Assembly (NCBI RefSeq): GCF_024972735.1
Contig: NZ_CP087723.1
Span: 2,728,001 to 2,792,000 of the forward strand
Source: Halalkaliarchaeum sp. AArc-CO
GTDB taxonomy: Archaea > Halobacteriota > Halobacteria > Halobacteriales > Haloferacaceae
Direction of reading: 5' to 3'
DNA length: 64,000 bases
Shown: one piece after another, positions 10,746 through 41,832 of the stretch
Numbering within the stretch: position 1 is the first letter of the stretch
Layout of the letters: each line of letters opens with the position of its first letter
The notes under the pieces: generated by a model
What the model was told of the DNA's origin: nothing
Database searches by the model: none
The model's input: the letters and a program-made list of their open reading frames with translations, nothing else
Program-made: the position numbers and the translations under genes

Positions 10746-12173
10746 ATGCTCTCCGGCTGGCGTTACCGCATCGCGAGTGCAACAGGTGTGATCTGTCTCA
10801 CAGCCGGTGCACTGCTCGTGGCCAACCACCCCACTGCCCAATTGCTGTTTACTACATACGTTCCCCTCTTTAACCGCCTCGATCCCACGGTTCTCACAGG
10901 TGCGGAACTTCAGCTCGCACTGTTGTTGAGCGTCGTCGCGATCGGGGGTGCACTCGTTCCCCTTTATAAACCTCGTCCGCGGCGCATCCTCGATACAGTA
11001 TTCTTCGCCCAAAAGCGGGTGCTCGTGGGGGGACTCGCGCTCGCAACGCTCGGGTATTTCCGGTGGTCGTACCGACATCCGCGTGCGACGCTGACGATGA
11101 TGGTCGGGGCCCTCCTCGTGGCGATCCCGCTGTGGTTCGTCTGGATCCGCCGTCGACCCACGAGTGATCCCGAGCGCACACTGCTGGTCGGCGACGATCC
11201 GGGTCAGCTGGAACGGATCGTCACGGAGACTGAGCACCCCTTCGTAGGCTATCTCGCCCCGACGGCAGTCTTCGGCGGCGAGGAGGAAGCCGAGAACGCG
11301 ATCCCTGCACCGCCACGCGCGGACGGTGGGGTCCAGGCCGACCTCGAACACCTCGGTGGACTCTCTCGCCTGGAGGACGCCCTCGTCGAACGCGATATCG
11401 ACGCCGTCGTCCTGGCGTTCCGGCAACCCGATCGGGCGGAGTTCTTCGGCGCGCTGGACGCCTGCTACGAACACGGCGTTGCAGCCAAGGTCCACCGGGA
11501 GTACGCCGACAGCGTGCTCACGGCCGAGGACAGCCTCGGAACACTCGTCGATGTCGAGGTGGAACCCTGGGACATTCAGGACTATGCCCTCAAACGCGCC
11601 TTCGACGTCGCCTTCGCCGGCAGTGCCCTGCTCGCTCTCTCGCCGGTAATCTTGTTAATCGCCCTCGCGATCAAACTCGAGGGTGAGGGACCAGTTCTGT
11701 TTTCGCAAAAGCGAACCTACCTCTTCGGGGAGACCTTCACGGTCTATAAGTTCCGAACGCTCAAGCCCGATCCAGAAGGTGAAGTCGGCACGACGATCGA
11801 CGACAATCGGGAGACGCCACTCGGAAACTTCCTCCGGACGACCCACCTCGACGAGATTCCCCAGCTGTGGTCGATCCTCGTCGGCGACATGAGCGTCGTC
11901 GGCCCCCGGCCGGCCCAGACGGATCTCGAATCGGACTTCGAAGCCGAGGCCGACCACTGGCGACACCGCTGGTTCGTTAAACCCGGCCTGACGGGGCTCG
12001 CCCAGATCAATGACGCAACCAGCCAGGAACCCCGCGAGAAAATTCAGTACGACATTCAGTACATTCGGACTCAGTCATTCACGGGGGATCTGAAAATCGT
12101 CTTCCGACAGTTCTGGCAGGTGGGAACCGACGTATTCGAGCTGGTGATTGGCCAGGACAGCGATGACGAGTAA
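10746..12173 (+). CDS. Polyprenyl sugar-phosphate transferase (initiating enzyme)
   Basis: The 475-residue protein resembles WcaJ/WbaP-type bacterial sugar transferases. The N-terminus has about four transmembrane helices (to residue 130), then a nucleotide-binding-like middle region. The catalytic domain starts at a membrane helix (KRAFDVAFAGSALLALSPVI, about 280-300). It continues with FSQKRTYLFGETFTVYKFRT, then LDEIPQLWSILVGDMSVVGP and RPAQ, and FVKPGLTGLAQIND. These motifs define transfer of a sugar phosphate from a nucleotide sugar to a lipid carrier, the first step of exopolysaccharide or glycan assembly. It sits beside sugar-modifying genes transcribed toward it. Confidence 0.9.
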   Translation: MLSGWRYRIASATGVICLTAGALLVANHPTAQLLFTTYVPLFNRLDPTVLTGAELQLALLLSVVAIGGALVPLYKPRPRRILDTVFFAQKRVLVGGLALATLGYFRWSYRHPRATLTMMVGALLVAIPLWFVWIRRRPTSDPERTLLVGDDPGQLERIVTETEHPFVGYLAPTAVFGGEEEAENAIPAPPRADGGVQADLEHLGGLSRLEDALVERDIDAVVLAFRQPDRAEFFGALDACYEHGVAAKVHREYADSVLTAEDSLGTLVDVEVEPWDIQDYALKRAFDVAFAGSALLALSPVILLIALAIKLEGEGPVLFSQKRTYLFGETFTVYKFRTLKPDPEGEVGTTIDDNRETPLGNFLRTTHLDEIPQLWSILVGDMSVVGPRPAQTDLESDFEAEADHWRHRWFVKPGLTGLAQINDATSQEPREKIQYDIQYIRTQSFTGDLKIVFRQFWQVGTDVFELVIGQDSDDE

Positions 12174-12244
12174 GCCGCATTGAGTTGTACTGACCATACG
12201 GGTCCGCAACTGGCTATCGAATCAAAGCTGTAAACCAGAGACCA

Positions 12245-13600
12245 CTACGGCGACAAAACGGCTGGGTTTAACTCCGCCTGCTCGACGACGTCACCCAGTG
12301 TCACCACGTCGGCGGCACACTCCTCGGGCATCGCGTTCCTGGTGTCGAAGACGAATCGCCCCCGTTCGCCGACGTACTCCAGGTCGAATTCGTCGTGATC
12401 GACGAGCAGCAGCACCGCGTCGGCCCCGGATAGATCTGCCTCCCTGGGCGAACGCAACAGTTGACGTGCGGTTCCATCCTCGTCGACGTGGGGATCAACG
12501 ACCGTCACTGTCGCGCGGTCGTCGAGCCGGTCGGCCACCCGCAGCGCCGGCGAATTCCGGGTGTCGCCGACATTCGGCTTGTACGCGGCCCCGAGCGCCA
12601 CAACCGACGCCTCGTCGGGCGAGACGCCCCGCGCCCTGAGCATTGTCTCCAGCCGGTCGACAACCAGCGCGGGCATGCGCTCGTTGAGCCGGTGGGCGTC
12701 CTGCAAGAACGACAGCTCCCCGCCGAACTCCTCGGCCCGCCACGCCAGGAACTGCGGATCGACCGGGATGCAATGGCCGCCGACGCCCGGTCCCGGGTAG
12801 AAGGCCTGAAAGCCGAACGGCTTCGTCGCCGCAGCGTCGATCGCCTCCCAGACGTCGCCGTCGAGTCCCTCCGCAAGCGTCACCAGTTCGTTCACCAGGG
12901 CGATGTTCACCATCCGGTAGGTGTTTTCGAGTGTCTTCGCCAGTTCGGCGGTCTCGGTCGACGCGACAGGATGCGTGTCGGCGACCACGGCGTCGAACAG
13001 TGCCAGGGCCGCTTCCCGCGCCGGCTCTGTGTCGGCGCCCACCACCAGCGGGATTTCCTCGAACGGGACGTCCCCGCCGGGGTTCAACCGCTCGGGGACC
13101 ATCGCCAGCCGCACCGGCGCGTCGGCCGGCGTCCGTTCGCGGTCGTTCACGACGATCGGTGCGACGATCTCCTGCGTGGCTCCGGGGTAGACCGTACTCG
13201 AAACGACTACCAGCGTCTCCCGGGAGCCCGACTGCGTTGCGACGGTCTCGGCGGCTGCCTCGACGGCGTCCATCCGGGGCTCGCCCGTCGCGTCGTTCAT
13301 CCCGGTAGGTACCGCAATCACGTACGCGTCACAGCCCTCGACGATGCTCGGGTCCGCCCCGGCAGTAAAGCCCGCCGCCAGGCCGGCCGCCAGGTCCCCG
13401 TCGCTCACGTCGTCGACGTAGCTGTCGCCGTTCAATAGCCGTTCCACGCGCCCGACGTCGATGTCGAACCCCGAGACGTCGAAGCCGGCGGCCGTGAACT
13501 CGAGCGCCAGCGGCAACCCGACGTAGCCCAGGCCGACGATGCCGACGCTTGCATCCCTGTCGACCAGCCTGTCCCTGAGGGTCGCCACCTCGCGAGTCAT
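12245..13600 (-). CDS. Nucleotide-sugar dehydrogenase (UDP-sugar to uronate)
   Basis: The 451-residue protein has a Rossmann start (VGIVGLGYVGLPLALEFTAA) and the catalytic Cys277 in PGVGGHCIPVDPQF. The C-terminal UDP-binding domain includes ALGAAYKPNVGDTRNSPALR. It belongs to the WecC/WbpA group, which oxidises UDP-N-acetylhexosamine or UDP-glucose to the uronic acid using two NAD+. Its ATG overlaps the stop of the upstream epimerase gene (13597-14583), so the two are co-transcribed and probably supply sugars for the neighbouring glycan pathway. The exact substrate cannot be told from sequence alone. Confidence 0.9.
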   Translation of the reverse strand: MTREVATLRDRLVDRDASVGIVGLGYVGLPLALEFTAAGFDVSGFDIDVGRVERLLNGDSYVDDVSDGDLAAGLAAGFTAGADPSIVEGCDAYVIAVPTGMNDATGEPRMDAVEAAAETVATQSGSRETLVVVSSTVYPGATQEIVAPIVVNDRERTPADAPVRLAMVPERLNPGGDVPFEEIPLVVGADTEPAREAALALFDAVVADTHPVASTETAELAKTLENTYRMVNIALVNELVTLAEGLDGDVWEAIDAAATKPFGFQAFYPGPGVGGHCIPVDPQFLAWRAEEFGGELSFLQDAHRLNERMPALVVDRLETMLRARGVSPDEASVVALGAAYKPNVGDTRNSPALRVADRLDDRATVTVVDPHVDEDGTARQLLRSPREADLSGADAVLLLVDHDEFDLEYVGERGRFVFDTRNAMPEECAADVVTLGDVVEQAELNPAVLSP

Positions 13601-14583
13601 CGTACCGCCTCCAGGTCAACGGGCGCGTCGGCCTGCGCTTCGATGACGTCCCGGAGGATCCGATCGAGGTCTGCCTCGGGAGCCCAGCCGAGCAGCGACT
13701 CCAGCTTCGAGACGTCCGGTTCGCGGTGATCCGGCTCCTCGAAGTCCTCGCTGTACGCCTCCTCGAATGGGACGTGGACGATCTCCGACTCGCTGCCGGT
13801 CAGCTCCAGTACCCGATCGGCAAGGTCGTTGATCGCCGTTGGCTGGGGAGCGCCGACGTTAAACACTTCGCCGTGCGCCGCGGGGGTCTCGAGTAGCTGG
13901 TGGGTCACAGTGACCGCGTCGGTGACGTGGGTGAAACTCCGGGTCTGCGTGCCGTCGCCGTACACAGTCAGCGGCTCGCCCGAAAGCGCCTGCTCGACGA
14001 AGGTCGGGATCACCATGCCGTACTCGCCAGTCTGGCGCGGGCCGACGATGTTGAAGTACCGCCCGATCACGACCGGGAGGTCGTACTCGTCGTGATAACT
14101 CAATGCGAGGAACTCGTCGGTCGCTTTGGCGGTAGTGTACCCCCAGCGGGTGACCGTCGTCGGGCCGACCACCCGGTCGTCCGACTCCGAGAATGGGAGG
14201 CTTTCGCTCTTTCCGTAAATCTCCGAGGATGAAGCCAGGAAGGTGGGCGTGCCGTCCTCGCTTGCGGCCTCGAGGACGTTCTCTGTGCCGTGAAGGTTCA
14301 CCTGTAGCGACTTGAGTGGGTTGTCGACGACGTTCTGGACCCCCACGGCTGCTGCGAGGTGATAGATCCGGTCAGCCTCGGCCACCGCCTCTGCAACGAC
14401 CTCGGCGTCTCGGACGTCGCCCGTCCGCACCTCGAGCCGATCGGACTCGACGTGAGCGAGATTGGCGACGTCGCCGGTGGAGAAATTGTCGAGGACCAGT
14501 ATCTCCGCCTCCGTTTCCGCAAGAAGGCGATCCACGAGATGAGACCCGATGAATCCGCCTCCACCGGTGATGAGAACCGTCAT
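13597..14583 (-). CDS. NAD-dependent sugar epimerase/dehydratase
   Basis: A 328-residue extended SDR with the nucleotide motif TGGGGFIGSHL at the N-terminus, and the catalytic Ser and YxxxK (SSSEIYGK, then RWGYTTAKATDEF). It also has RYFNIVGPRQTGEYGMVIP, typical of GalE, UDP-glucuronate decarboxylase and dTDP-glucose dehydratase relatives. The ATG at 14583 puts the Rossmann strand directly at the start; the eight codons upstream are not needed. It is the first gene of a two-gene minus-strand operon and is divergent from the GalE-like gene at 14850. Confidence 0.88.
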   Translation of the reverse strand: MTVLITGGGGFIGSHLVDRLLAETEAEILVLDNFSTGDVANLAHVESDRLEVRTGDVRDAEVVAEAVAEADRIYHLAAAVGVQNVVDNPLKSLQVNLHGTENVLEAASEDGTPTFLASSSEIYGKSESLPFSESDDRVVGPTTVTRWGYTTAKATDEFLALSYHDEYDLPVVIGRYFNIVGPRQTGEYGMVIPTFVEQALSGEPLTVYGDGTQTRSFTHVTDAVTVTHQLLETPAAHGEVFNVGAPQPTAINDLADRVLELTGSESEIVHVPFEEAYSEDFEEPDHREPDVSKLESLLGWAPEADLDRILRDVIEAQADAPVDLEAVR

Positions 14584-14607
14584 GTGAATTCCCGTAGTCG
14601 TGGTCAA

Positions 14608-14628
14608 CCAAAAGTGTACTTTTCTTGG
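14608..14628. promoter_or_regulatory. Palindrome in the divergent glycan-gene promoter
   Basis: AAAAGTGTACTTTT (14610-14623) is a perfect inverted repeat inside the slightly longer imperfect palindrome CCAAAAGTGTACTTTTCTTGG (21 bases, described here only by its ends CCAA and TTGG). It lies just upstream of the minus-strand epimerase start, in the 266-bp gap before the GalE-like gene. It is A/T-rich against a G/C-rich background. A regulator site or overlapping TATA elements are both possible. Confidence 0.4.
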
Positions 14629-14849
14629 CGCCGATCTGGATTATGAAGTTAATACCCGCATAAATCGGGACTCTCGGAGCGTTTTCGACGCATAACTAAC
14701 TCACAGAGTATCGCACCCCAATTCGTGTGTCCCGCTGTCCATCCCGCGAATCGAGCCTCCGTCCCCGGTCTCCATCCCGGACGCGGCGAAACGATCACTG
14801 AATCCAGGACCCATTCGATTTGGAACTCCGTCTGGTCCAGGGCTGTAGT

Positions 14850-32932: not shown

Positions 32933-34861
32933 TCAGTCGTCGGCGGGCGCGGTGCCCTCGTCGCCCATCGAAACGCCGGTTCCGGGTCCGACGTCGATCC
33001 CCAGGTCATCGAGCTTCTCGTCGGGGACGACCCCGTCGACCCACTCGCGGTGGTCGTAGTACTCTGCTTTCATCTCCTCGAGCTCACACAGTTCGCCCTC
33101 CGAGCCGCCCTGGCCCGGGATGGCGTCCTCGTGACCCTTCACGAACCGGCCCGGCAGCGAGTCGTCGGCGCCGTCGAAGCCGTTGAGGTTGTTGTAGTAG
33201 CGCTCGAGGTTGTAGATGCGCTCGCCGGCCTCGAACAGCTCGTCCTCGGTGAGGTCGCGGCCGGTCATGCCGTTGTACTGGAGCACGTACTCTTCGATCC
33301 CCTCGGCGAAGGCGTTGAACTTGCAGATGTCGAAGCTGTCGGAGATCGCGTGCAGGTCCTGGAAGGTGGCGGTGAGTTCGCCTTTCCCCTCCCACTCGTA
33401 GGGGTCGACCTTCTCCGGGACGCCGAGGATCTCCGCCGCCGGCGTGTACCCCCGGAGGTGGTCGGCGCCGCGGTTCGAGGTGGCGTAGCCGATGCCCATT
33501 CCCTTCATGCAGCGCGGGTCGTAGGCGGGAATTCCCTGCCCTTTCACGGTCATCGCGATCCGGGAGTCGCCGAACTGCTCGGCCGCGCGGGCGGTCCCCT
33601 CCGCCAGCGCGTCTGCGAGGTCGTCCTCGCGGTGGGCGATCCGCTCGATCATCTCGATCATCGTGTCGGCGTCGCCCCACTCGATCCCCTCCTCGATGAG
33701 GCCCTTCTCGGTGGCTTCCATCGCCATCGAGAGGGTGTTTCCGGTCTCGATGGAGTCGATGCCCATGTCGTTACAGCGGTCCATGATGACCGCCGTCTTC
33801 GCGGCGTCGTCGTTCAGCGAGTTCGGCCCCAGCGACCAGGCGGGCTCGTACTCGAACGACTCCATCCGGACGTTCATGTCCTCGCCTTTGTGCATCGTCT
33901 GCACCTCGACCTCCTTCTTGCAGGCGACCGGACAGGAGTGACACGTCGGCTCGTCGACCAGGATGTTCTCCCGGACGTGCTCGCCGGAGACCTTCTCGGC
34001 GTCGGCGCCGGTGTCGAAGTCCTCCCGGGCGCTCTTGGTGGAGGTGTACCGGCCGTTCTTGGTGGGCAGGCCGTCCATCTCCTCGGTGATGTTCATCAGG
34101 ACGTTCGTCCCGTACACCGAGAGGCCGCCCTCGTTCGGGGCGGTGACGTCGGATTCTCGCACCACCTGCATCGCCTGCTGGGCGCCCTCCTGGAACGTCT
34201 CCGCGTCGGCCGGCTTGGGCATCTTGGTGCCGGACTTGACGACGACGGCTTTCAGCTTCTTGTCGCCCATGACCGCGCCAGTGCCGCCACGGCCGGAGGC
34301 GCGGTCGTCCTCGTTCATGATGCAGGCGTACCGGACGCCGTTCTCGCCGCCCGGTCCGATCGCCATCACGCTGAGGTTCTTGCCGATCTCACCGTCGACC
34401 TCTTCGCCGAGGGTTTCGATCGTCTCGTGGACGCCCTTGCCCCACAGGTGGCTGGCGTCGCGCAGTTCGAGTTCGCCGTCCTCGACGACGGCGTAGACGG
34501 GATCGTCGCTGCGCCCGTCGAACAGCAGGCCGTCGACGCCGGCCCACTTCAGCCGGGCGCCCGACCAGCCGCCGTGATGCGAGTCGGTGACCGTCCCCGT
34601 CAGCGGGGATTTGGTCACGACCGCGATCCGGCCGCTCATCACCGCCTGCGAGCCCGTCAGCGGCCCGGTCATGAAGCACAGTCGGTTCTCCGGGCTCAGC
34701 GGCTCGAGCTCCGGATCCTTCTCGAACATGTACCGCACTCCGAGCCCGCGTGCGCCGATGTACTTCTCGGCGTCCTCGTCGTCGATGCCCCGGTAGTTCA
34801 CGTCGCCCTCGGTGAGGTCGACCGCTACCACGTTGTCCCTGAATCCGCCATACTCTGTCAT
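32933..34861 (-). CDS. aor: Aldehyde ferredoxin oxidoreductase (tungsten/molybdopterin)
   Basis: The 642-residue protein matches AOR length. N-terminal domain: NVVAVDLTEGDVNYRGIDDE, GLGVRYMFEKDPELEPL, then pterin-binding SGRIAVVTKSPLTGTVTDSH. The 4Fe-4S ligands appear in EPTCHSCPVACKKE, with further conserved helices such as SIETGNTLSMAMEATEKGLI. The family oxidises aldehydes to acids with ferredoxin as electron acceptor. No MoaD-like or ferredoxin gene adjoins it, so cofactor and partner genes must lie elsewhere. A TATA-like element is probable in the A/T-richer stretch after 34861. Confidence 0.92.
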   Translation of the reverse strand: MTEYGGFRDNVVAVDLTEGDVNYRGIDDEDAEKYIGARGLGVRYMFEKDPELEPLSPENRLCFMTGPLTGSQAVMSGRIAVVTKSPLTGTVTDSHHGGWSGARLKWAGVDGLLFDGRSDDPVYAVVEDGELELRDASHLWGKGVHETIETLGEEVDGEIGKNLSVMAIGPGGENGVRYACIMNEDDRASGRGGTGAVMGDKKLKAVVVKSGTKMPKPADAETFQEGAQQAMQVVRESDVTAPNEGGLSVYGTNVLMNITEEMDGLPTKNGRYTSTKSAREDFDTGADAEKVSGEHVRENILVDEPTCHSCPVACKKEVEVQTMHKGEDMNVRMESFEYEPAWSLGPNSLNDDAAKTAVIMDRCNDMGIDSIETGNTLSMAMEATEKGLIEEGIEWGDADTMIEMIERIAHREDDLADALAEGTARAAEQFGDSRIAMTVKGQGIPAYDPRCMKGMGIGYATSNRGADHLRGYTPAAEILGVPEKVDPYEWEGKGELTATFQDLHAISDSFDICKFNAFAEGIEEYVLQYNGMTGRDLTEDELFEAGERIYNLERYYNNLNGFDGADDSLPGRFVKGHEDAIPGQGGSEGELCELEEMKAEYYDHREWVDGVVPDEKLDDLGIDVGPGTGVSMGDEGTAPADD

Positions 34862-35112: not shown

Positions 35113-36189
35113 ATGAGCAAAACGAGCCTCGAAAGCTACGAGGAGGGGCGCGGGATGGACGCCCACAACCGGGTGATGCGCGAGATCCGCGCCCGCCGGG
35201 AGGAGACCTACGACCCCCACGAGCCGACGCGGGTGTGGCTCGACGAGGACAACACTCCCGACGGCGTCTACCAGTCGCTGACGATCATCCTCAACACCGG
35301 CGGCTGCCGGTGGGCGCGGGCGGGCGGCTGCACCATGTGCGGCTACGTCGCCGAGTCCGTCGAGGGGGGCTCCGTGAGCCACGAGGCGCTCGTCGATCAG
35401 CTCGAGGTCTGTCTCGAGTACGAGCGCGAACACGCCGACGAGCCGGCCGGCCTGATCAAGATCTACACCTCCGGCTCCTTCCTCGACGAGCGGGAGGTGC
35501 CCGCCGAGACCCGGGAAACCGTCGCCGAGACGTTCGCCGACCGCGATCGAATCGTCGTCGAGTCGCTTCCGGATTTCGTCGAGCGGGAGAAGCTCGCAGA
35601 CTTCACCGACCGCGGGCTCGAAACCGACGTCGCGGTCGGCCTCGAGACCGCGACCGACCGGGTTCGACACGACTGCGTCAACAAGTACTTCGACTTCGTC
35701 GACTTCGAGGACGCCTGCAGGGAGGCGAACGCCGCCGGCGCCGGCGTGAAGGCGTACCTCCTGATGAAGCCGCCGTTCCTCGCGGAGCCGGAAGCTGTCG
35801 AGGACATGATCGACTCGATCGAGCGCTGTGCGACGATCGACGCCTGCCACACAGTCTCCATGAATCCGTGTAACGTCCAGCGATACACGATGGTCGAGGA
35901 GCTGTACTTCTCGGACGGCTACCGACCCCCGTGGCTGTGGTCGGTCGCCCACGTCCTCGCGGAGACCGCCGACGTCGACGCGATCGTCGTCTCGGACCCG
36001 GTGGGTCACGGCTCCGACCGGGGACCGCACAACTGCGGCGACTGCGACGACCGGGTCCAGACCGCGATCAAGGATTTCGGCCTCAGACAGGATCCATCAG
36101 TGTTCGAGCAGGTCTCCTGTGACTGCGAGTCGACCTGGGAGCTGGTGATGGACGCGGAGACGGCGTACAACATGCCGCTGGTCGGGTGA
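35113..36189 (+). CDS. raSEA: Archaeosine biosynthesis radical SAM protein RaSEA
   Basis: The 358-residue radical SAM protein has NTGGCRWARAGGCTMCGYVA as its cluster motif region (spaced cysteines), then IKIYTSGSFLDEREVPAETR and KAYLLMKPPFLAEPEAVEDM. C-terminal cysteines occur in NPCNVQ and HNCGDCDDRV. This is the archaeal family identified as the partner of ArcS in converting preQ0-lysine-modified tRNA G15 to archaeosine. ATG 35113 fits family starts (MSKTSLESYEEGRGMDAHNR); the longer upstream frame looks non-coding. It acts in the cytosol on tRNA. Confidence 0.88.
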   Translation: MSKTSLESYEEGRGMDAHNRVMREIRARREETYDPHEPTRVWLDEDNTPDGVYQSLTIILNTGGCRWARAGGCTMCGYVAESVEGGSVSHEALVDQLEVCLEYEREHADEPAGLIKIYTSGSFLDEREVPAETRETVAETFADRDRIVVESLPDFVEREKLADFTDRGLETDVAVGLETATDRVRHDCVNKYFDFVDFEDACREANAAGAGVKAYLLMKPPFLAEPEAVEDMIDSIERCATIDACHTVSMNPCNVQRYTMVEELYFSDGYRPPWLWSVAHVLAETADVDAIVVSDPVGHGSDRGPHNCGDCDDRVQTAIKDFGLRQDPSVFEQVSCDCESTWELVMDAETAYNMPLVG

Positions 36190-36281
36190 GGCGAAGGAAA
36201 ACACAGTAGCTGCCGATTTTTTATAAGGACTCGGACGAGCTAATTTCATCATTCTGATGCGTACTGTTTAGTGGGGAGGCC

Positions 36282-39200
36282 GTGAATCGGAGGCCGATGG
36301 ACGACCGGATCCAGGAGGCGCTGCGGACGATCGATCGGCGCCGTACGATGCTCGACCGACTCCGGTCGCCGGCGGAAAAGCGGGAACTCGTCGAGGGGCT
36401 CGACTGCTCGCGGGCGACGGTCGACCGGGCGATCCGTCGGCTCGAGGACTGGGGATGGATCGAGCGCGTCGACCAGGGGTGGCAGTTGAGCTACGCGGGA
36501 CGGACGCTGCGTGACCGGTACGTCCGGTTTCAGGAGGAGTTCGCCGACGTACTCGCGGGCACCGAGGTGCTCGCTTCGCTGCCGTCGGACGCCGACGTGG
36601 ACGCCGACCTGTTCACGGGTGCGATCGTCACTGCAGGGAACCGACGGGACGTCGACCCCGGCGGCGACGGAAACGAGTTGCCGACTGAACTGCGGGCGCG
36701 GATCGAATCCGCGGATCGGATCCGGCTGGTCGCGCCCGCCGAGACCGCGGCGAGGCTGCTTTCCAGCTGTCGGGAGCTCTCCAGCGGGACCGTCGAGGCC
36801 GTCATCGACCGGCACGTACTCTCGCGGCTGCCGGAGCGAACGCCGGCGCTGGCGCGGTGGCTCGTCCGATCCGATCGGACGGAAGCGTTCGCCGCCGAGA
36901 CGCCACCCTACGCGCTGCTGTTGCTCTCCGAGGGGGACGCGACGACCGTCTCGGTCGTCGGCCACCGCCAGAACCGCACCGTCGAGGGGGTCGTTTCGAA
37001 CGACACCGATCCCGCAGTCGGGTGGGCCGAGCGTCGATATCGGGCGCTCAGGCGGACCGCCACGCCGCTTGCCGAGGCCGTCGAGTGGGGCGGCGTCCCC
37101 GTGCCGAGCGATCCCGACCCCACGGACGCGCTCTTCCGGGAGGGATTCCTGAAGCTGACGCCGTCGTACTTCACGGAGCGTGATCCGCTTCCGCTGTCGA
37201 CCGCGTGGCGGGCCGGCGTCGGCTTCCCCGAGATCGCTGCCGGCCACGCCCTCGAACGGGAACACGTCAAGGACGGCAGGCGGCGGTCGCTGGTGGCGGA
37301 TCTCCTCTCCGCGCTCGAAGGAGGAGGAACCCGCGCGCTGATCGGCCCGCCGGGTTCCGGGAAAAGCACCGTCTGTCGCGACGTCGCCTACCGGTGGTAC
37401 CGGACGGTGGGATCCGTACTGTATCGACCGGAGGGCGGCACCGAACCGTTCGAGTCGTGGCGGGCGCTCGTGCGGCTGCTCCGGGAGCGAACCCGCCCCA
37501 CCCTCGTCGTAATCGAGGGAGCGCTCCGCGCCGATGCGAGGGCGGTATTCCGTGCGGTCGAAGCGCTGGAGGACGACGCCGGCGTCGCGTTCCTCCTCGA
37601 GTCGGGAAACGATCGGTGGGCCGTCGACGGGACGTTCGACGTCGACCCGCACGATCTGGCGATCAGAGAGCGGATCGGAACCGTTCGGATGCCGGCACTG
37701 GACGCGATCGAGCGCGATCGGTTCCGATCGCGGCTGGAAGAGGCGACGGGCGTCTCGATCGACCTCGACGTCGGCGGATCGGCAAACGAAGACGGGCAGA
37801 CCGACGCCGACGGGCAGACCGACGCCGACGGGCAGACCGACGCCGACGGGCAGACCGACGCCGACAGGACCCAGGCGACGGAACCGGGGGAGTTGCTGTT
37901 GTTCCTCACCCGGCTCGTGATGCAGGTTGATCCGGCCGGACGAAACGGATCCAACGGAGCCACTCCTCCGGGAACGACCGTCGACTCGGGAGCTGCCTCC
38001 GAGCTGGACGCCGACGTCGAAGAGCTGTGTGCGTCGCTCCGGGGGGACGAGCTGGCGATAGATACCGCCGTGCTCGTCAACCTCCTCAACGCCGCGGAGC
38101 TTCCGGTGGCCCTCGAGTACGCCTACGCGCTGGCGTTCGAGGCGGGCGACGGGATCGTCGCCCCGGCGGCAGACGTGGGCGGAAAGACCGGACAGTCGTC
38201 TAAAGACCGCCTCGAAGAACGGATCCACCGGGTCGAACGGGCGATCGAGACGTTGTCGGGGCGAGTGCTGTTCGACACGTCCGACCGGGAGGAGTACCGG
38301 ACAGTTCACGCGGGGTGGTCGAGTGCGTTTCTGCGGCGGCTGCTCGAGACGGACGGACGCGCCGCGATCGACCGGGTCGATCGGTGTGTGAGTACGGTGC
38401 TCGCGCTCGCAGTCGACGAGCGGACCCGAGATCGGATCCGAAATAGACGGGACGAGGAGCGGCTGTCGTCGACTACAAGCGAGAAGGACCCGCTCGATCG
38501 GATCGAGGACGATCCCGGCGGGTGGGCGGAGTCGATCGCGCGTCGACTGGTCGAGTTCTCGGCGGACCACCCCGCGCTGGCCCCGCTTCTATGCGGCTGT
38601 GACGGTCCGACGTTCGCCGTCCCGCGGGGGCGGTCGGCCGGCCTGACCGTCGAGCTCGCCGAACGCTGCGGCCGGGGCCACCTCGCGGGCGGCCGGCTCG
38701 AGGAGGCCGAACGGGCCTTCGAATCCGCACTCGAACGCCTCGAAGTCGCCCCGATCGTCACCGAGGACCGGACCCGACTCCGGGCGCGCTGTCGGGTCGG
38801 GCTCGGAAACGTCGCCGTCGAACGGGGAGCCTACGACGAGGCCGAACGGCTGTACCGGGAGGCGCTGTCGGGCTACCGCGAACTGGACGACAGCCTCGGG
38901 GTCGCAGACAGCCTCAGACATCTGGGATCCGTTTCCCAGCGTCGCTCCGAACTCGACGACGCAGCGGATCGATACGCCCGGAGTCTCGGTATCTATCTGG
39001 AGCTGGGCGCCGAACGGAAGCTCGCCACGGCGCTTGCCGACATCGGATCGGTGGCTCAGGATCGGGGCGACTTCGAGACCGCCGCCAGACACTACCGCGA
39101 GAGCCGGCGACGATACTCGGCGCTCGGACAGCGTCGTGATCTCGTGGACGTCCTCGGAAAGCTGGCGACCGTCGGCTGGGTCACCGGCGACCTCGAGGCC

Positions 39201-39995
39201 GCCGAAAAGCGGGCACGGCGGGCCGCAGCGATCGCCCGGGAGATCGGCTACGAACACGGGCTCGCGACCGCCCAGTACCATCTCGCCGTGGTGTCGAACG
39301 TCCGTGGCGACACGGCGGCAGCACGAGAGCACGCCGAACGGGCGGTCGACGGGTTCGTGGCGATCGGAAACGACCACCACGAGGCGAGCGCCCGATCCCT
39401 GCTCGGGGAGATCGAGCGGGCGAACGGAAACCTCGACCGGGCCGAGGAGCACTACAGGATGGCCGCACGGAGACACGAAGAGGTGGAGGACGATCGAGGA
39501 CATCTCGACGCGCTGATGGGGCTCGGGCGGATCGCGCGCCAGCGGGGCGACCTCGGCGGGGCGACCGAGCGCGCCGAACGCGCCCTGGAGCTTTCCCGAG
39601 CGGTCGGCGACGCGCGCAGCGAGGCGGCGTGTCTGCGGCTGCTCGGTACGATCGATCGGGAGAGAGGGGAGCTCGATCGGGCGGACGACCGGCTCGAGTC
39701 CGCTCTGTCGGGATACCGCGACGTCGAAGAGCGCCACGGCGAGGCGGCGACGCTCCTCGAACTGGCCGAGGTCGCGGCCGAGCGCGGCGAGCGCGACCGC
39801 GCCCGGGGGCTGTTCGAGCGGGCGATCGAAGGCTACCGGGAGATCGACGCGACCCCCGACACCGCCGATGCCCTCGAGCGGTTCGCCGATCGGTGCGAGG
39901 CGTGGGGCGCGGTCGACGAGGCACGCCGACGACGCGCGACCGCAGACCGGCTTCGCGAGGGGGACTCGGACCCCGAGAACCCGCTCGCGGAGTAA
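36282..39995 (+). CDS. Fusion of FilR1-type regulator, STAND-like ATPase and TPR array
   Basis: The 1237-residue protein has three parts. Residues ~10-75 are a winged HTH (GLDCSRATVDRAIRRLEDWG), and ~90-275 resemble the FilR1/haloarchaeal regulator middle domain (RIRLVAPAETAARLLSS; ALLLLSEGDATTVSVVGHRQ). Residues ~330-600 are a P-loop ATPase with Walker A GPPGSGKST (~354-362) and a weak Walker B TLVVIEGAL (no canonical DD/DE). From ~787 to ~1215 run about ten TPR-like repeats (GDFETAARHYRESRRRYSAL type). An acidic DGQTDA repeat linker lies at 504-527. Such layouts (MalT, STAND sensors) couple ligand sensing to oligomerisation and gene control or defence. TTTTTTATAAGG at about 36217 is a likely TATA. 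GTG start; ATG 36297 is possible. Confidence 0.82.
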   Translation: MNRRPMDDRIQEALRTIDRRRTMLDRLRSPAEKRELVEGLDCSRATVDRAIRRLEDWGWIERVDQGWQLSYAGRTLRDRYVRFQEEFADVLAGTEVLASLPSDADVDADLFTGAIVTAGNRRDVDPGGDGNELPTELRARIESADRIRLVAPAETAARLLSSCRELSSGTVEAVIDRHVLSRLPERTPALARWLVRSDRTEAFAAETPPYALLLLSEGDATTVSVVGHRQNRTVEGVVSNDTDPAVGWAERRYRALRRTATPLAEAVEWGGVPVPSDPDPTDALFREGFLKLTPSYFTERDPLPLSTAWRAGVGFPEIAAGHALEREHVKDGRRRSLVADLLSALEGGGTRALIGPPGSGKSTVCRDVAYRWYRTVGSVLYRPEGGTEPFESWRALVRLLRERTRPTLVVIEGALRADARAVFRAVEALEDDAGVAFLLESGNDRWAVDGTFDVDPHDLAIRERIGTVRMPALDAIERDRFRSRLEEATGVSIDLDVGGSANEDGQTDADGQTDADGQTDADGQTDADRTQATEPGELLLFLTRLVMQVDPAGRNGSNGATPPGTTVDSGAASELDADVEELCASLRGDELAIDTAVLVNLLNAAELPVALEYAYALAFEAGDGIVAPAADVGGKTGQSSKDRLEERIHRVERAIETLSGRVLFDTSDREEYRTVHAGWSSAFLRRLLETDGRAAIDRVDRCVSTVLALAVDERTRDRIRNRRDEERLSSTTSEKDPLDRIEDDPGGWAESIARRLVEFSADHPALAPLLCGCDGPTFAVPRGRSAGLTVELAERCGRGHLAGGRLEEAERAFESALERLEVAPIVTEDRTRLRARCRVGLGNVAVERGAYDEAERLYREALSGYRELDDSLGVADSLRHLGSVSQRRSELDDAADRYARSLGIYLELGAERKLATALADIGSVAQDRGDFETAARHYRESRRRYSALGQRRDLVDVLGKLATVGWVTGDLEAAEKRARRAAAIAREIGYEHGLATAQYHLAVVSNVRGDTAAAREHAERAVDGFVAIGNDHHEASARSLLGEIERANGNLDRAEEHYRMAARRHEEVEDDRGHLDALMGLGRIARQRGDLGGATERAERALELSRAVGDARSEAACLRLLGTIDRERGELDRADDRLESALSGYRDVEERHGEAATLLELAEVAAERGERDRARGLFERAIEGYREIDATPDTADALERFADRCEAWGAVDEARRRRATADRLREGDSDPENPLAE
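37791..37862 (+). repeat. 18-bp in-frame minisatellite (four units)
   Basis: GACGGGCAGACCGACGCC is repeated four times without interruption inside the large regulator-ATPase gene, encoding (DGQTDA)4 in the linker after the ATPase core. Unit length is a multiple of three, so copy-number change would only lengthen or shorten the acidic linker. Confidence 0.95.
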
Positions 39996-40008: not shown

Positions 40009-40395
40009 TCAGACGGACGGAACCGACACCGTCATCGACGCCTCGGTGTCGACGTTCTCGGCGGTCACCACGCCACGAACCTCGTACGTGCCGGCGGGCG
40101 GGTTCTCCCAGATCGCCCCGTGGGACCGCGACTCGCCCGGCGCGAGGGTCTCGCGTCCGAGTGCCTGGGTGAACAGCCGCCCGTCGCTGTACCGCCACAC
40201 CACCTCGCCACCTTCCTCGCCGTCCTCGCCATCCGCCCTGTCCCTGTCCGTGTCGTCGATCCGCTCGACGACGAAGTCGAACCGCTGGCCCGACCGGAAC
40301 GACAGCTCCACGGGGTCGTCGCCGTCGTTCGTAACCGTCAGGGTGAGTTCGAACCCCTCTTCGACCGGCGCGACCGACAGCGTCGACGTGAGCAT
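40009..40395 (-). CDS. BsuPI-like intracellular proteinase inhibitor domain protein
   Basis: The 128-residue beta-sandwich protein has FELTLTVTNDGDDPVELSFR then SGQRFDFVVERI, and TLAPGESRSHGAIWENPPAG then TYEVRGVVTAEN, matching the BsuPI domain. An acidic loop (DDTDRDRADGEDGEEGG) is inserted in the middle. There is no signal peptide, so an intracellular role is likely. ATG 40395 was chosen (MLTSTLSVAPVEEG); the upstream frame is not protein-like. It follows the membrane protein gene (40419-40772) on the same strand with a 23-bp gap. Confidence 0.75.
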   Translation of the reverse strand: MLTSTLSVAPVEEGFELTLTVTNDGDDPVELSFRSGQRFDFVVERIDDTDRDRADGEDGEEGGEVVWRYSDGRLFTQALGRETLAPGESRSHGAIWENPPAGTYEVRGVVTAENVDTEASMTVSVPSV

Positions 40396-40418
40396 ACGTC
40401 GCCGTTTGGCCCGGGGAG

Positions 40419-40772
40419 CTAAACGTTTCTCGCCATCCGCGCCGCCTCCAGGGCCACAAGCAAGATCGTGATCAACATCGCCGACGTCACCGCCAGCACG
40501 AACGCCAGCACCAGAAACCACCCCTCCGGGCCGAGGATCGGATACTCGCGTCCGCCAGCCGGCGGGCCCAACAGCTCGAGCACCCGAACGAGATACGCCG
40601 CGATCGCGAGCGACAGTCCCGCGAGCCCGCCACGTTTCGCGTGTTTGGGCACCGAAAGCGCCGACAGCATCGCCGAGGCCGGCGGTCGGTCGGGTCGCTC
40701 CTGTTCTGCACGTTCGTCCGCGCCCCCCGAACGCTCGAAGCCGTCCGTTCCGTCAGTCCCCTCTCGACTCAC
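40419..40772 (-). CDS. Small membrane protein (two helices)
   Basis: The 117-residue protein has an N-terminal acidic, disordered part (GTDGTDGFERSGGADERAEQ) and two hydrophobic segments (LAGLSLAIAAYLVRVLELLG and WFLVLAFVLAVTSAMLITIL). I recall a haloarchaeal family of similar shape (DUF7536) but am not certain. GTG 40772 was chosen as start because it lies just before the acidic part. It is divergent from purS and forms an operon with the BsuPI-like gene downstream. Confidence 0.6.
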   Translation of the reverse strand: MSREGTDGTDGFERSGGADERAEQERPDRPPASAMLSALSVPKHAKRGGLAGLSLAIAAYLVRVLELLGPPAGGREYPILGPEGWFLVLAFVLAVTSAMLITILLVALEAARMARNV

Positions 40773-40894: not shown

Positions 40895-41146
40895 ATGACC
40901 CCCTACACCGCGACGGTGACCGTCCGGCTGAAACCCGGCGTGCTGGATCCGGAAGCGGAGACGACACAGCGCGCGCTGGAGCGACTCGGGTTCGAACTGG
41001 AAGACCTCCGGTCGGCCGACCGGTTCGAGATCGACCTGGAGGCGGCCGACGCCGAGGACGCCGGCGACCGGGCCGCGGAGATGGCAGAGCGGCTGCTCGC
41101 GAACCCGACGATCCACGACTACGAGGTCGCGGTCTCCGAACGATGA
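40895..41146 (+). CDS. purS: Phosphoribosylformylglycinamidine synthase subunit PurS
   Basis: The 83-residue protein (MTPYTATVTVRLKPGVLDPE; GFELEDLRSADRFEIDLEAA) has the length and ferredoxin-like fold of PurS, the small structural subunit that bridges PurL and PurQ in step four of purine synthesis. Its stop overlaps the purQ start (ATGA). ATG 40895 is preferred because it gives the family N-terminus. CGTATCCAAAACGG and TTTTTGCAC upstream (about 40849-40870) probably hold the promoter. Confidence 0.93.
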   Translation: MTPYTATVTVRLKPGVLDPEAETTQRALERLGFELEDLRSADRFEIDLEAADAEDAGDRAAEMAERLLANPTIHDYEVAVSER

Positions 41147-41832
41147 CCGTCGCAGTCGTCCAGTTCGGCGGGTCCAACTGCGACCGGGACGGCGTCCGTG
41201 CGCTGGAGCATCTCGGGATCGGCGCCGAGCGCGTCTGGCACGAGGATGGCCTCCCGGACGACGTCGAGGGGATCCTGCTTCCAGGGGGGTTCTCCTACGG
41301 CGACTACCTCAGGGCGGGCGCGATGGCCGCCCGGGCGCCGGTGATGCAGGAGGTGCGTGCGGCCGCAGCCGAGGGCGTGCCGGTGCTTGGCGTCTGCAAC
41401 GGCGCCCAGATCGGCTGCGAGTCGAGCCTGACACCCGGAGCATTCACGACCAACGAGAGCGCCCGGTTCCAGTGTGAACACGTCCACTGCCGGGTCGAAC
41501 GCGCCGACACCCCCTGGACGGCAGCGTACGAGGAGGGGGAGGTGCTCCGGCTGCCGATCGCCCACGCGGAGGGGCGCTTCGAGATAAGCGAGGAACGATA
41601 CGCCGACCTCGAGGAGAACGACCGGATCCTGTTCCGGTACTGTGAGCCCGACGGGACCGTCACCGACCAGGCGAACCCGAACGGCTCGACGGGCAACGTC
41701 GCGGGTCTGCTCGGGGAACGCGAGACCGTCGCGGTGTTGATGCCCCATCCCGAACGGGCGACGCTGCCCGACCTCGGGCTCACCGACGGCGCCGGTGTAC
41801 TGTACGGGTTCGATCCCTCGCTGCGGGATTGA
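41143..41832 (+). CDS. purQ: Phosphoribosylformylglycinamidine synthase subunit PurQ
   Basis: The 229-residue class I glutamine amidotransferase has the nucleophile Cys85 in VLGVCNGAQIG and the catalytic His-Glu in MPHPERATLP. GGFSYGDYLRAGAMAA marks the oxyanion region of PurQ. It releases ammonia from glutamine for FGAM synthesis by PurL, which is not in this window. It is translationally coupled to purS by overlap. Confidence 0.95.
   Translation: MTVAVVQFGGSNCDRDGVRALEHLGIGAERVWHEDGLPDDVEGILLPGGFSYGDYLRAGAMAARAPVMQEVRAAAAEGVPVLGVCNGAQIGCESSLTPGAFTTNESARFQCEHVHCRVERADTPWTAAYEEGEVLRLPIAHAEGRFEISEERYADLEENDRILFRYCEPDGTVTDQANPNGSTGNVAGLLGERETVAVLMPHPERATLPDLGLTDGAGVLYGFDPSLRD

What the first reader, a model, noticed from the sequence alone, without database searches (positions are those of the whole stretch)
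36282..39995. One-gene fusion of FilR1-type regulator, STAND-like ATPase and TPR array
The N-terminus is a winged HTH followed by a region that looks like the FilR1 middle domain of haloarchaeal regulators. A P-loop ATPase (GPPGSGKST, about residues 354-362) and about ten TPR-like repeats follow. The Walker B is weak (TLVVIEGAL, Glu but no acidic pair), which hints at signalling rather than strong hydrolysis. MalT- and STAND-type sensors link ligand binding to ATP-driven oligomerisation, but usually have the HTH at the other end. A single 1237-residue protein with this order could be a self-contained sensor, and might take part in phage defence like other STAND proteins. Neither role is shown.
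Basis: partly seen in the sequence, partly recalled or inferred. Interest (0 to 1): 0.7.

Follow-up and report, generated by a model that had tools for sequence, protein, structure and literature searches.

The report
Haloarchaeal STAND-type transcription regulator with TPR sensor
This single large haloarchaeal protein joins a DNA-binding head, a STAND-type ATP switch and a repeat-built sensor, and it belongs to a widespread, apparently unstudied family that most likely works like the maltose regulator MalT; it matters mainly because close relatives carry the same switch and sensor without the DNA-binding head.

Summary
Foldseek ties the module to Avs5, SAMD9, MalT, PH0952, NOD2 and Apaf-1. 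It is not a one-off: all 32 family members scanned have the HTH, the STAND match and TPRs, and 30 have FilR1. Relatives were found only in Halobacteria. 'HTH at the wrong end' is not unusual: Pyrococcus PH0952 has the same order without FilR1 (PMC6468293). The weak Walker B is specific to this genus: 37 of 42 sequences have Glu-Asp, while the window and its sister species lost the Asp and a nearby Arg. Neighbours argue against a defence island: in its subclade the gene keeps one chromosomal slot between raSEA and purQ. Best reading: an inducer-gated STAND transcription regulator; ligand and targets are unknown. Relatives that share the switch and TPRs but have an unknown, non-HTH N-terminus also exist. 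New variant of a known kind.

The parts
36282..39995 (+). Whole gene: HTH-FilR1-STAND-TPR protein, 1237 aa from GTG 36282 (or 1232 aa from ATG 36297, likelier)
   Evidence: start choice from relatives' N-termini and DNA
36217..36227 (+). TATA-box-like stretch (TTTTTATAAG) 55-70 bases before the gene; possible own promoter, could also be a T-rich terminator of raSEA
   Evidence: read directly; not tested
36318..36542 (+). Winged HTH, HVO_A0261_N (residues 13-87); T46 and R49 invariant in the family
36675..37055 (+). FilR1_middle domain (residues 132-258)
37131..37271 (+). Segment just before the NTPase (residues about 284-330: GFLKLTPSYF...WRAGVGFPEIAAGHALER), shared with the relatives that lack the HTH, so it marks the N-terminal edge of the shared module
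   Evidence: alignment
37344..37370 (+). Walker A GPPGSGKST (residues 355-363), invariant lysine 361
37281..37622 (+). nSTAND_NTPase5 match (residues 334-447)
37500..37520 (+). Walker B TLVVIEG (407-413): E412 invariant in 42 sequences; position 413 is D in 37, G only here and in L062
37590..37619 (+). FLLESGNDRW (437-446), at the place of the family's FLLDARxxEW; near-invariant R442 is G here and in L062
37791..37865 (+). 18-bp tandem repeat, 4.2 perfect copies (QTDADG), low-confidence linker inside the STAND module
38001..38348 (+). Winged-helix domain of the STAND module (about 574-690) with H676 (39 of 42 sequences)
   Evidence: domain borders inferred
38352..38642 (+). Helical 'arm' between the winged helix and the TPRs (about 691-787)
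   Evidence: border inferred by analogy with PH0952/MalT
38643..39902 (+). TPR array, ten 40-residue hairpins plus one helix (residues 788-1207)
35113..36189 (+). raSEA, archaeosine biosynthesis radical SAM protein, same strand, 92 bases upstream; conserved neighbour in the subclade
41143..41832 (+). purQ, conserved flanking gene on the other side of the slot (purS 40895-41146 next to it)

Best explanation
A one-protein, inducer-gated transcription regulator of the STAND type. At rest, the winged HTH-FilR1 head would sit on a closed, ADP-bound nucleotide-binding module held shut by the helical arm and the TPR superhelix. An inducer bound by the TPRs (and perhaps a second ligand on the FilR1 domain) would open the module, allow ATP binding and self-association, and bring several winged HTH heads together so that they bind operator DNA. 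Shown here: the domains, their order, their conservation, the STAND fold and the family's spread. Inferred from MalT and PH0952: the closed/open switch, oligomerisation and DNA binding. Unknown: inducer, target genes, and whether it activates or represses. In this genus the second Walker B acid and the conserved Arg are gone, so hydrolysis (the reset step) is probably slow or lost and the switch probably relies on nucleotide binding.
For: HTH and FilR1 domains at good E-values; HTH in 32/32 and FilR1 in 30/32 family members. AlphaFold2 model of the module, mean pLDDT 84.6, matches STAND proteins including the regulators MalT (8bob) and PH0952 (6mfv); the near-full-length model again finds PH0952 over 786 columns, and the MalT sensor domain 1hz4. 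Invariant Walker A lysine and E412, H676 in 39/42. Precedent with N-terminal wHTH-NOD-arm-TPR: PH0952 (PMC6468293). MalT cycles between monomeric ADP-bound and oligomeric ATP-bound forms on maltotriose (PMC10427625). Neighbours are housekeeping genes. Purifying selection, strongest on TPR and NBD (dN/dS 0.15 and 0.18).
Against: No inducer, operator or regulon is known. TM-scores to solved STANDs are low (mostly 0.2-0.4), so the domain arrangement is not shown. Loss of D413 and R442 in this genus could mean a crippled switch. Full-length pTM is only 0.60, so inter-domain placement is unsure.
Confidence: 0.68

Rival explanations
1. A STAND immune sensor: the TPRs recognise a viral protein, the module oligomerises, and the HTH head binds nucleic acid or switches on a defence response.
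For: Best Foldseek matches of the module include Avs5 filaments and SAMD9. Relatives with the same module and TPRs but no HTH have neighbours that include TnpB/IS605 genes, toxin-antitoxin-like genes and other PADLOC matches.
Against: No PADLOC model of a defence STAND matches the protein; the hits are generic TPR or weak. The nearest neighbours of 27 HTH-bearing loci show only HerA/AAA-type and 'mad' PADLOC matches. The gene keeps a fixed slot between raSEA and purQ. The TPR part is 87.6% identical between sister species, more than FilR1 at 81.7%, the opposite of a diversifying sensor.
Confidence: 0.14
2. A regulator or accessory factor of the neighbouring archaeosine tRNA-modification gene raSEA (or of purine synthesis), kept beside its target.
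For: raSEA lies directly upstream on the same strand, with gaps of 36-92 bases in 6 of 7 loci measured and 349 in the seventh, in loci of two families whose STAND proteins are only 33-37% identical to the window's. In the Halorubrum group the next gene downstream encodes a protein like the C-terminal part of archaeosine synthase ArcS.
Against: raSEA and purQ are near-universal and lie close together in many genomes whose slot lacks the STAND gene, e.g. G138, G066, G100, G040, so the slot may simply be inherited. Haloferax relatives have the gene elsewhere. A TATA-like stretch suggests its own promoter. The Halorubrum link is within one genus.
Confidence: 0.13
3. A degenerating pseudo-ATPase in this genus with no switching function left.
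For: Two catalytic-site residues conserved in nearly all relatives are lost (D413, R442); the stem branch of the genus in the module tree is long (0.95 changes per column).
Against: The frame is intact in both species, dN/dS is 0.22, and the NBD is the best conserved part between them at 89%; Walker A is intact.
Confidence: 0.05

Closest known systems
PH0952 of Pyrococcus horikoshii (PDB 6mfv; PMC6468293)
   Same: Archaeal, N-terminal winged HTH, then STAND module, arm and TPR sensor; found by Foldseek with both models.
   Different: PH0952 has an ArsR-like HTH and no FilR1 domain reported, and six TPRs instead of ten; only 11% identity in the structural match.
MalT of Escherichia coli (PDB 8bob, 1hz4)
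   Same: STAND transcription regulator with a superhelical TPR-type sensor; the TPR_MalT model matches, and the sensor fold matches (1hz4, TM 0.74 by target length).
   Different: MalT has its HTH at the C-terminus, no FilR1 domain, and a known inducer (maltotriose).
Haloarchaeal stand-alone HVO_A0261_N-FilR1_middle regulators
   Same: Same HTH-FilR1 head as separate genes, mostly 255-350 codons long, common in the class.
   Different: No STAND module or TPRs.
FilR1 of Methanosaeta harundinacea
   Same: wHTH followed by the PF08350 (formerly DUF1724) domain (PMC5847659).
   Different: FilR1 carries a C-terminal receiver domain and belongs to the FilI two-component system; this protein has a STAND-TPR part in that place.
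Avs5 / AVAST type 5 anti-phage STAND
   Same: STAND module; top Foldseek match.
   Different: Avs5 has a SIR2 effector; here the head is HTH-FilR1 and there is no defence neighbourhood.

Membership tests
STAND NTPase superfamily | P-loop NTPase with Walker A and an acidic Walker B | tested here: met
   Walker A intact; E412 invariant in 42 sequences, but second acid D413 lost in this genus
STAND NTPase superfamily | NBD-HD followed by a winged-helix domain (NOD), with arm and repeat sensor | tested here: met
   AlphaFold2 models and Foldseek matches to Avs5, MalT, PH0952, NOD2, Apaf-1; TM-scores are low
STAND NTPase superfamily | ADP/ATP switch with oligomerisation | not testable with these tools
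   needs purified protein
Pfam PF25199 nSTAND_NTPase5 | score over the curated cut-off of 34 bits | tested here: inconclusive
   33.9 bits in hmmscan of the whole protein, 38.0 and over the cut-off in the genome search; many relatives score clearly over it
Pfam PF08350 FilR1_middle | score over the curated cut-off of 27 bits | tested here: met
   53.2 bits, residues 132-258
Pfam PF25213 HVO_A0261_N | score over the curated cut-off of 35 bits | tested here: met
   57.6 bits, residues 13-87
MalT-type STAND transcription regulators | DNA-binding effector fused to NOD and TPR-like sensor | tested here: met
MalT-type STAND transcription regulators | NCBIfam equivalog for MalT (PRK04841), cut-off 537 bits | tested here: not met
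   23.8 bits: may work like MalT, is not MalT
MalT-type STAND transcription regulators | inducer-dependent DNA binding and gene activation | not testable with these tools
   needs experiment
Anti-phage STAND (Avs and similar) | match to a defence STAND model | tested here: not met
   only generic TPR and weak matches in PADLOC-DB
Anti-phage STAND (Avs and similar) | location in defence islands | tested here: not met
   housekeeping neighbours, fixed raSEA-purQ slot

The most novel reading that the evidence does not exclude
One haloarchaeal switch-and-sensor platform (nSTAND5-like module plus TPRs) carries two kinds of head: an HTH-FilR1 head that makes a chromosomal transcription regulator, and, in a sister set, an unrelated Gly/Ala-rich, probably helical N-terminal domain that acts as a death or membrane effector in immunity. 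That would be an archaeal example of gene regulation and immunity branching from one STAND by head exchange.
Probability: 0.3. Interest if true: 0.65.

Novelty: new variant of a known kind. Interest (0 to 1): 0.42.

Why it matters
Large inducer-gated STAND regulators are well known in bacteria, but in archaea the literature found here covers essentially PH0952. This family is spread over the Halobacteria, including Haloferax and Halorubrum, relatives of genetically tractable lab species, so inducer, regulon and nucleotide switch can be tested directly. It also joins two possible ligand modules (FilR1 and TPR) on one switch, which raises the question of dual-input control. The head exchange with HTH-less relatives offers a way to see how regulators and possible immune sensors share one STAND core. 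No paper found here describes the family.

Tried and rejected
Phage defence by context: PADLOC scans of the protein and of 103 neighbours gave no support. Operon with raSEA: considered, but raSEA and purQ lie close together in many genomes with no STAND gene in the slot, and the intergenic stretch has a TATA-like box. 'Unique fusion': rejected, the fusion is the rule. 'Weak Walker B as a family trait': rejected. Domain capture history: the module tree separates HTH-bearing (60) and HTH-less (13) rows, but that branch is the weakly supported root (SH-aLRT 36), so neither one gain nor one loss is shown; the head tree does not put all fused heads in one clade, and repeated exchange with solo regulators is neither shown nor excluded. 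Literature: searches for FilR1, nSTAND, DUF1724, PH0952 and archaeal STAND found no paper on this family. Reading of the long antisense ORFs as genes: rejected, typical of high-GC halophile DNA. Not done: viral contig scans, and statistics of neighbours against a matched control.

Full report
Observation. The open frame at 36282-39995 (+) is real and encodes 1237 residues. Met6 (ATG 36297) is a likelier start than the GTG, judging from the N-termini of relatives. Pfam finds HVO_A0261_N (13-87, 1.2e-15), FilR1_middle (132-258, 3.8e-14), nSTAND_NTPase5 (334-447, 3.4e-8, a hair under its cut-off) and many TPR models. It is the only copy in its 3.18-Mb genome. Against the same-genus orthologue L062 (84% identity) dN/dS is 0.22, with the TPR part (0.15) and NBD (0.18) most constrained.

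Fold. AlphaFold2 of residues 272-830 with 32 family sequences gives mean pLDDT 84.6. Foldseek against the PDB returns, among generic AAA+ hits, a line of STAND proteins: EfAvs5, SAMD9, AVAST5, MalT (8bob), PH0952 (6mfv), NOD2 and Apaf-1. TM-scores are low (mostly 0.2-0.4), which supports the fold but not a given domain arrangement. The near-full-length model (residues 12-1211, pLDDT 84.0, pTM 0.60) shows ten 40-residue TPR hairpins plus a helix and again matches PH0952 over 786 columns and the MalT sensor domain 1hz4.

Family. nSTAND_NTPase5 is over its cut-off in 58 of 294 genomes sampled from the class; these include HTH-less relatives. In a phylum-wide sample every genome with a match to the module profile belongs to the window's own order. 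Forty-one relatives were fetched and aligned with the window protein. Of 32 scanned (the window included), all have HVO_A0261_N, nSTAND_NTPase5 and TPRs, and 30 have FilR1_middle. Named carriers include Haloferax, Halorubrum, Halocatena, Halegenticoccus and Haloarchaeobius species. Hence the fusion is an old and common haloarchaeal architecture, not a curiosity of this genome.

Catalytic site. In 42 sequences K361 and E412 are invariant. Position 413 is D in 37, N in 2, E in 1, and G only in the window and L062; position 442 is R in 40 and G in the same two. So the family has a normal Glu-Asp Walker B and a conserved arginine that looks like a sensor-type residue (inference), and both were lost in this genus. 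Both species have an Arg at 445 instead, possibly compensating. The winged-helix histidine (H676) is kept in 39 of 42; by analogy with Apaf-1 it may contact the nucleotide (own knowledge, not tested).

Neighbourhood. In the window the gene sits between raSEA (archaeosine radical SAM protein, TIGR01210) and purS/purQ. The raSEA-STAND-purQ order recurs in L062, L063, L065, L066, L076, L077, L105, L110 and L111 (L102 and L153 duplicate L065 and L105), across at least two families, with STAND proteins that, outside the genus, are only 33-37% identical to the window's in the ones aligned. All lie within one subclade of the module tree. Many genomes have raSEA and purQ close together and convergent with no room for a STAND gene, e.g. 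G138 (34 bases), G100 (10), G066 (34), G123 (about 290). The slot is therefore an inherited, stable one, in housekeeping surroundings. In 27 representative loci the nearest genes are metabolic or unrelated; the only PADLOC matches at 1e-10 are HerA/AAA-type ATPases and a few 'mad' hits.

Relatives without the HTH. Thirteen fetched relatives (L118, L137-L139, L141, L143-L147, L149, L152, L154) share the module and, where scanned, TPRs, but have no HTH-FilR1 (one search finds no match to the head profile in the gene). Eleven of them have a conserved N-terminal domain of about 200 residues with a Gly/Ala-rich start and no Pfam match in the nine scanned; similarity to the HTH-bearing proteins begins just before the NTPase ('GFxxL...YF...P...WR...AG'). 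Their surroundings more often hold TnpB and toxin-antitoxin-like genes, but thresholds and numbers of genes differ from the other scan, so this is a lead, not a result. The tree splits HTH-bearing and HTH-less rows, but that branch is the weak root.

Mechanism. By precedent, STAND regulators with a TPR sensor rest as ADP-bound closed monomers held by the arm and sensor, and open on inducer binding to self-associate (PMC6468293, PMC10427625). This protein has every part needed: DNA-binding head, nucleotide module, arm, TPR sensor. Domains and fold are shown here; switching, oligomerisation and DNA binding are inferred; ligand and targets are unknown. FilR1_middle is described as uncharacterised (PMC5847659) and may be a second ligand site or a dimerisation domain (inference). 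The HTH-first order has a direct precedent in PH0952 (wHTH-NOD-arm-TPR).

Verdict. A new variant of a known kind: a FilR1-bearing STAND-TPR regulator family, spread over the Halobacteria and apparently undescribed. The defence idea is not supported for this gene. The most interesting open point is the exchange of the head in HTH-less relatives.

Noticed in passing
L137:3438-6434, L138:6703-9822, L139:5047-8313, L141:6107-9079, L143:7038-9806, L144:6556-9489, L145:603-3371, L147:7781-11317, L118:6120-9056, L152:5233-8538, L154:6133-9273: Relatives with the same STAND module and TPRs but an unknown, conserved, Gly/Ala-rich N-terminal domain in place of HTH-FilR1; no Pfam match for that domain.
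   Followed up: partly
L146:7058-9628 and L149:6273-8690: Two more HTH-less relatives with N-termini that look different again (hydrophobic, membrane-like).
   Followed up: no
L074:12316-12822 and the same place in other Halorubrum-group loci (L080, L087-L089, L091, L093, L094): The gene directly downstream of the STAND gene encodes a protein like the C-terminal (PUA) part of archaeosine synthase ArcS, a second neighbour from the archaeosine pathway.
   Followed up: partly
window 37791-37865: Perfect 18-bp tandem repeat (4.2 copies, QTDADG) in a disordered linker of the STAND module; the relatives' alignment is gapped nearby, so it looks recent.
   Followed up: partly
L101:7216-10677 and 10801-14706: Two STAND-HTH paralogues in tandem, next to a PQQ-type beta-propeller gene and a 1697-residue surface-type protein.
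   Followed up: no
L073, L075, L096, L097, L101, L077, L095: PQQ-like beta-propeller proteins recur near several relatives (one blastp family in 7 of 41 loci, four PF13360 matches among the 103 nearest neighbours).
   Followed up: no
L082, L083, L085, L078: In one group the STAND gene is followed by a NikR-type nickel regulator, with a HerA-like ATPase gene close by.
   Followed up: no
window 32933-34861: Aldehyde ferredoxin oxidoreductase family gene on the other strand beside raSEA, also near raSEA in L062 and L066.
   Followed up: no
window 40009-40670: Two small genes on the minus strand between the STAND gene and purS with no NCBIfam match; seen only in the window and the sister species among the loci compared.
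   Followed up: no
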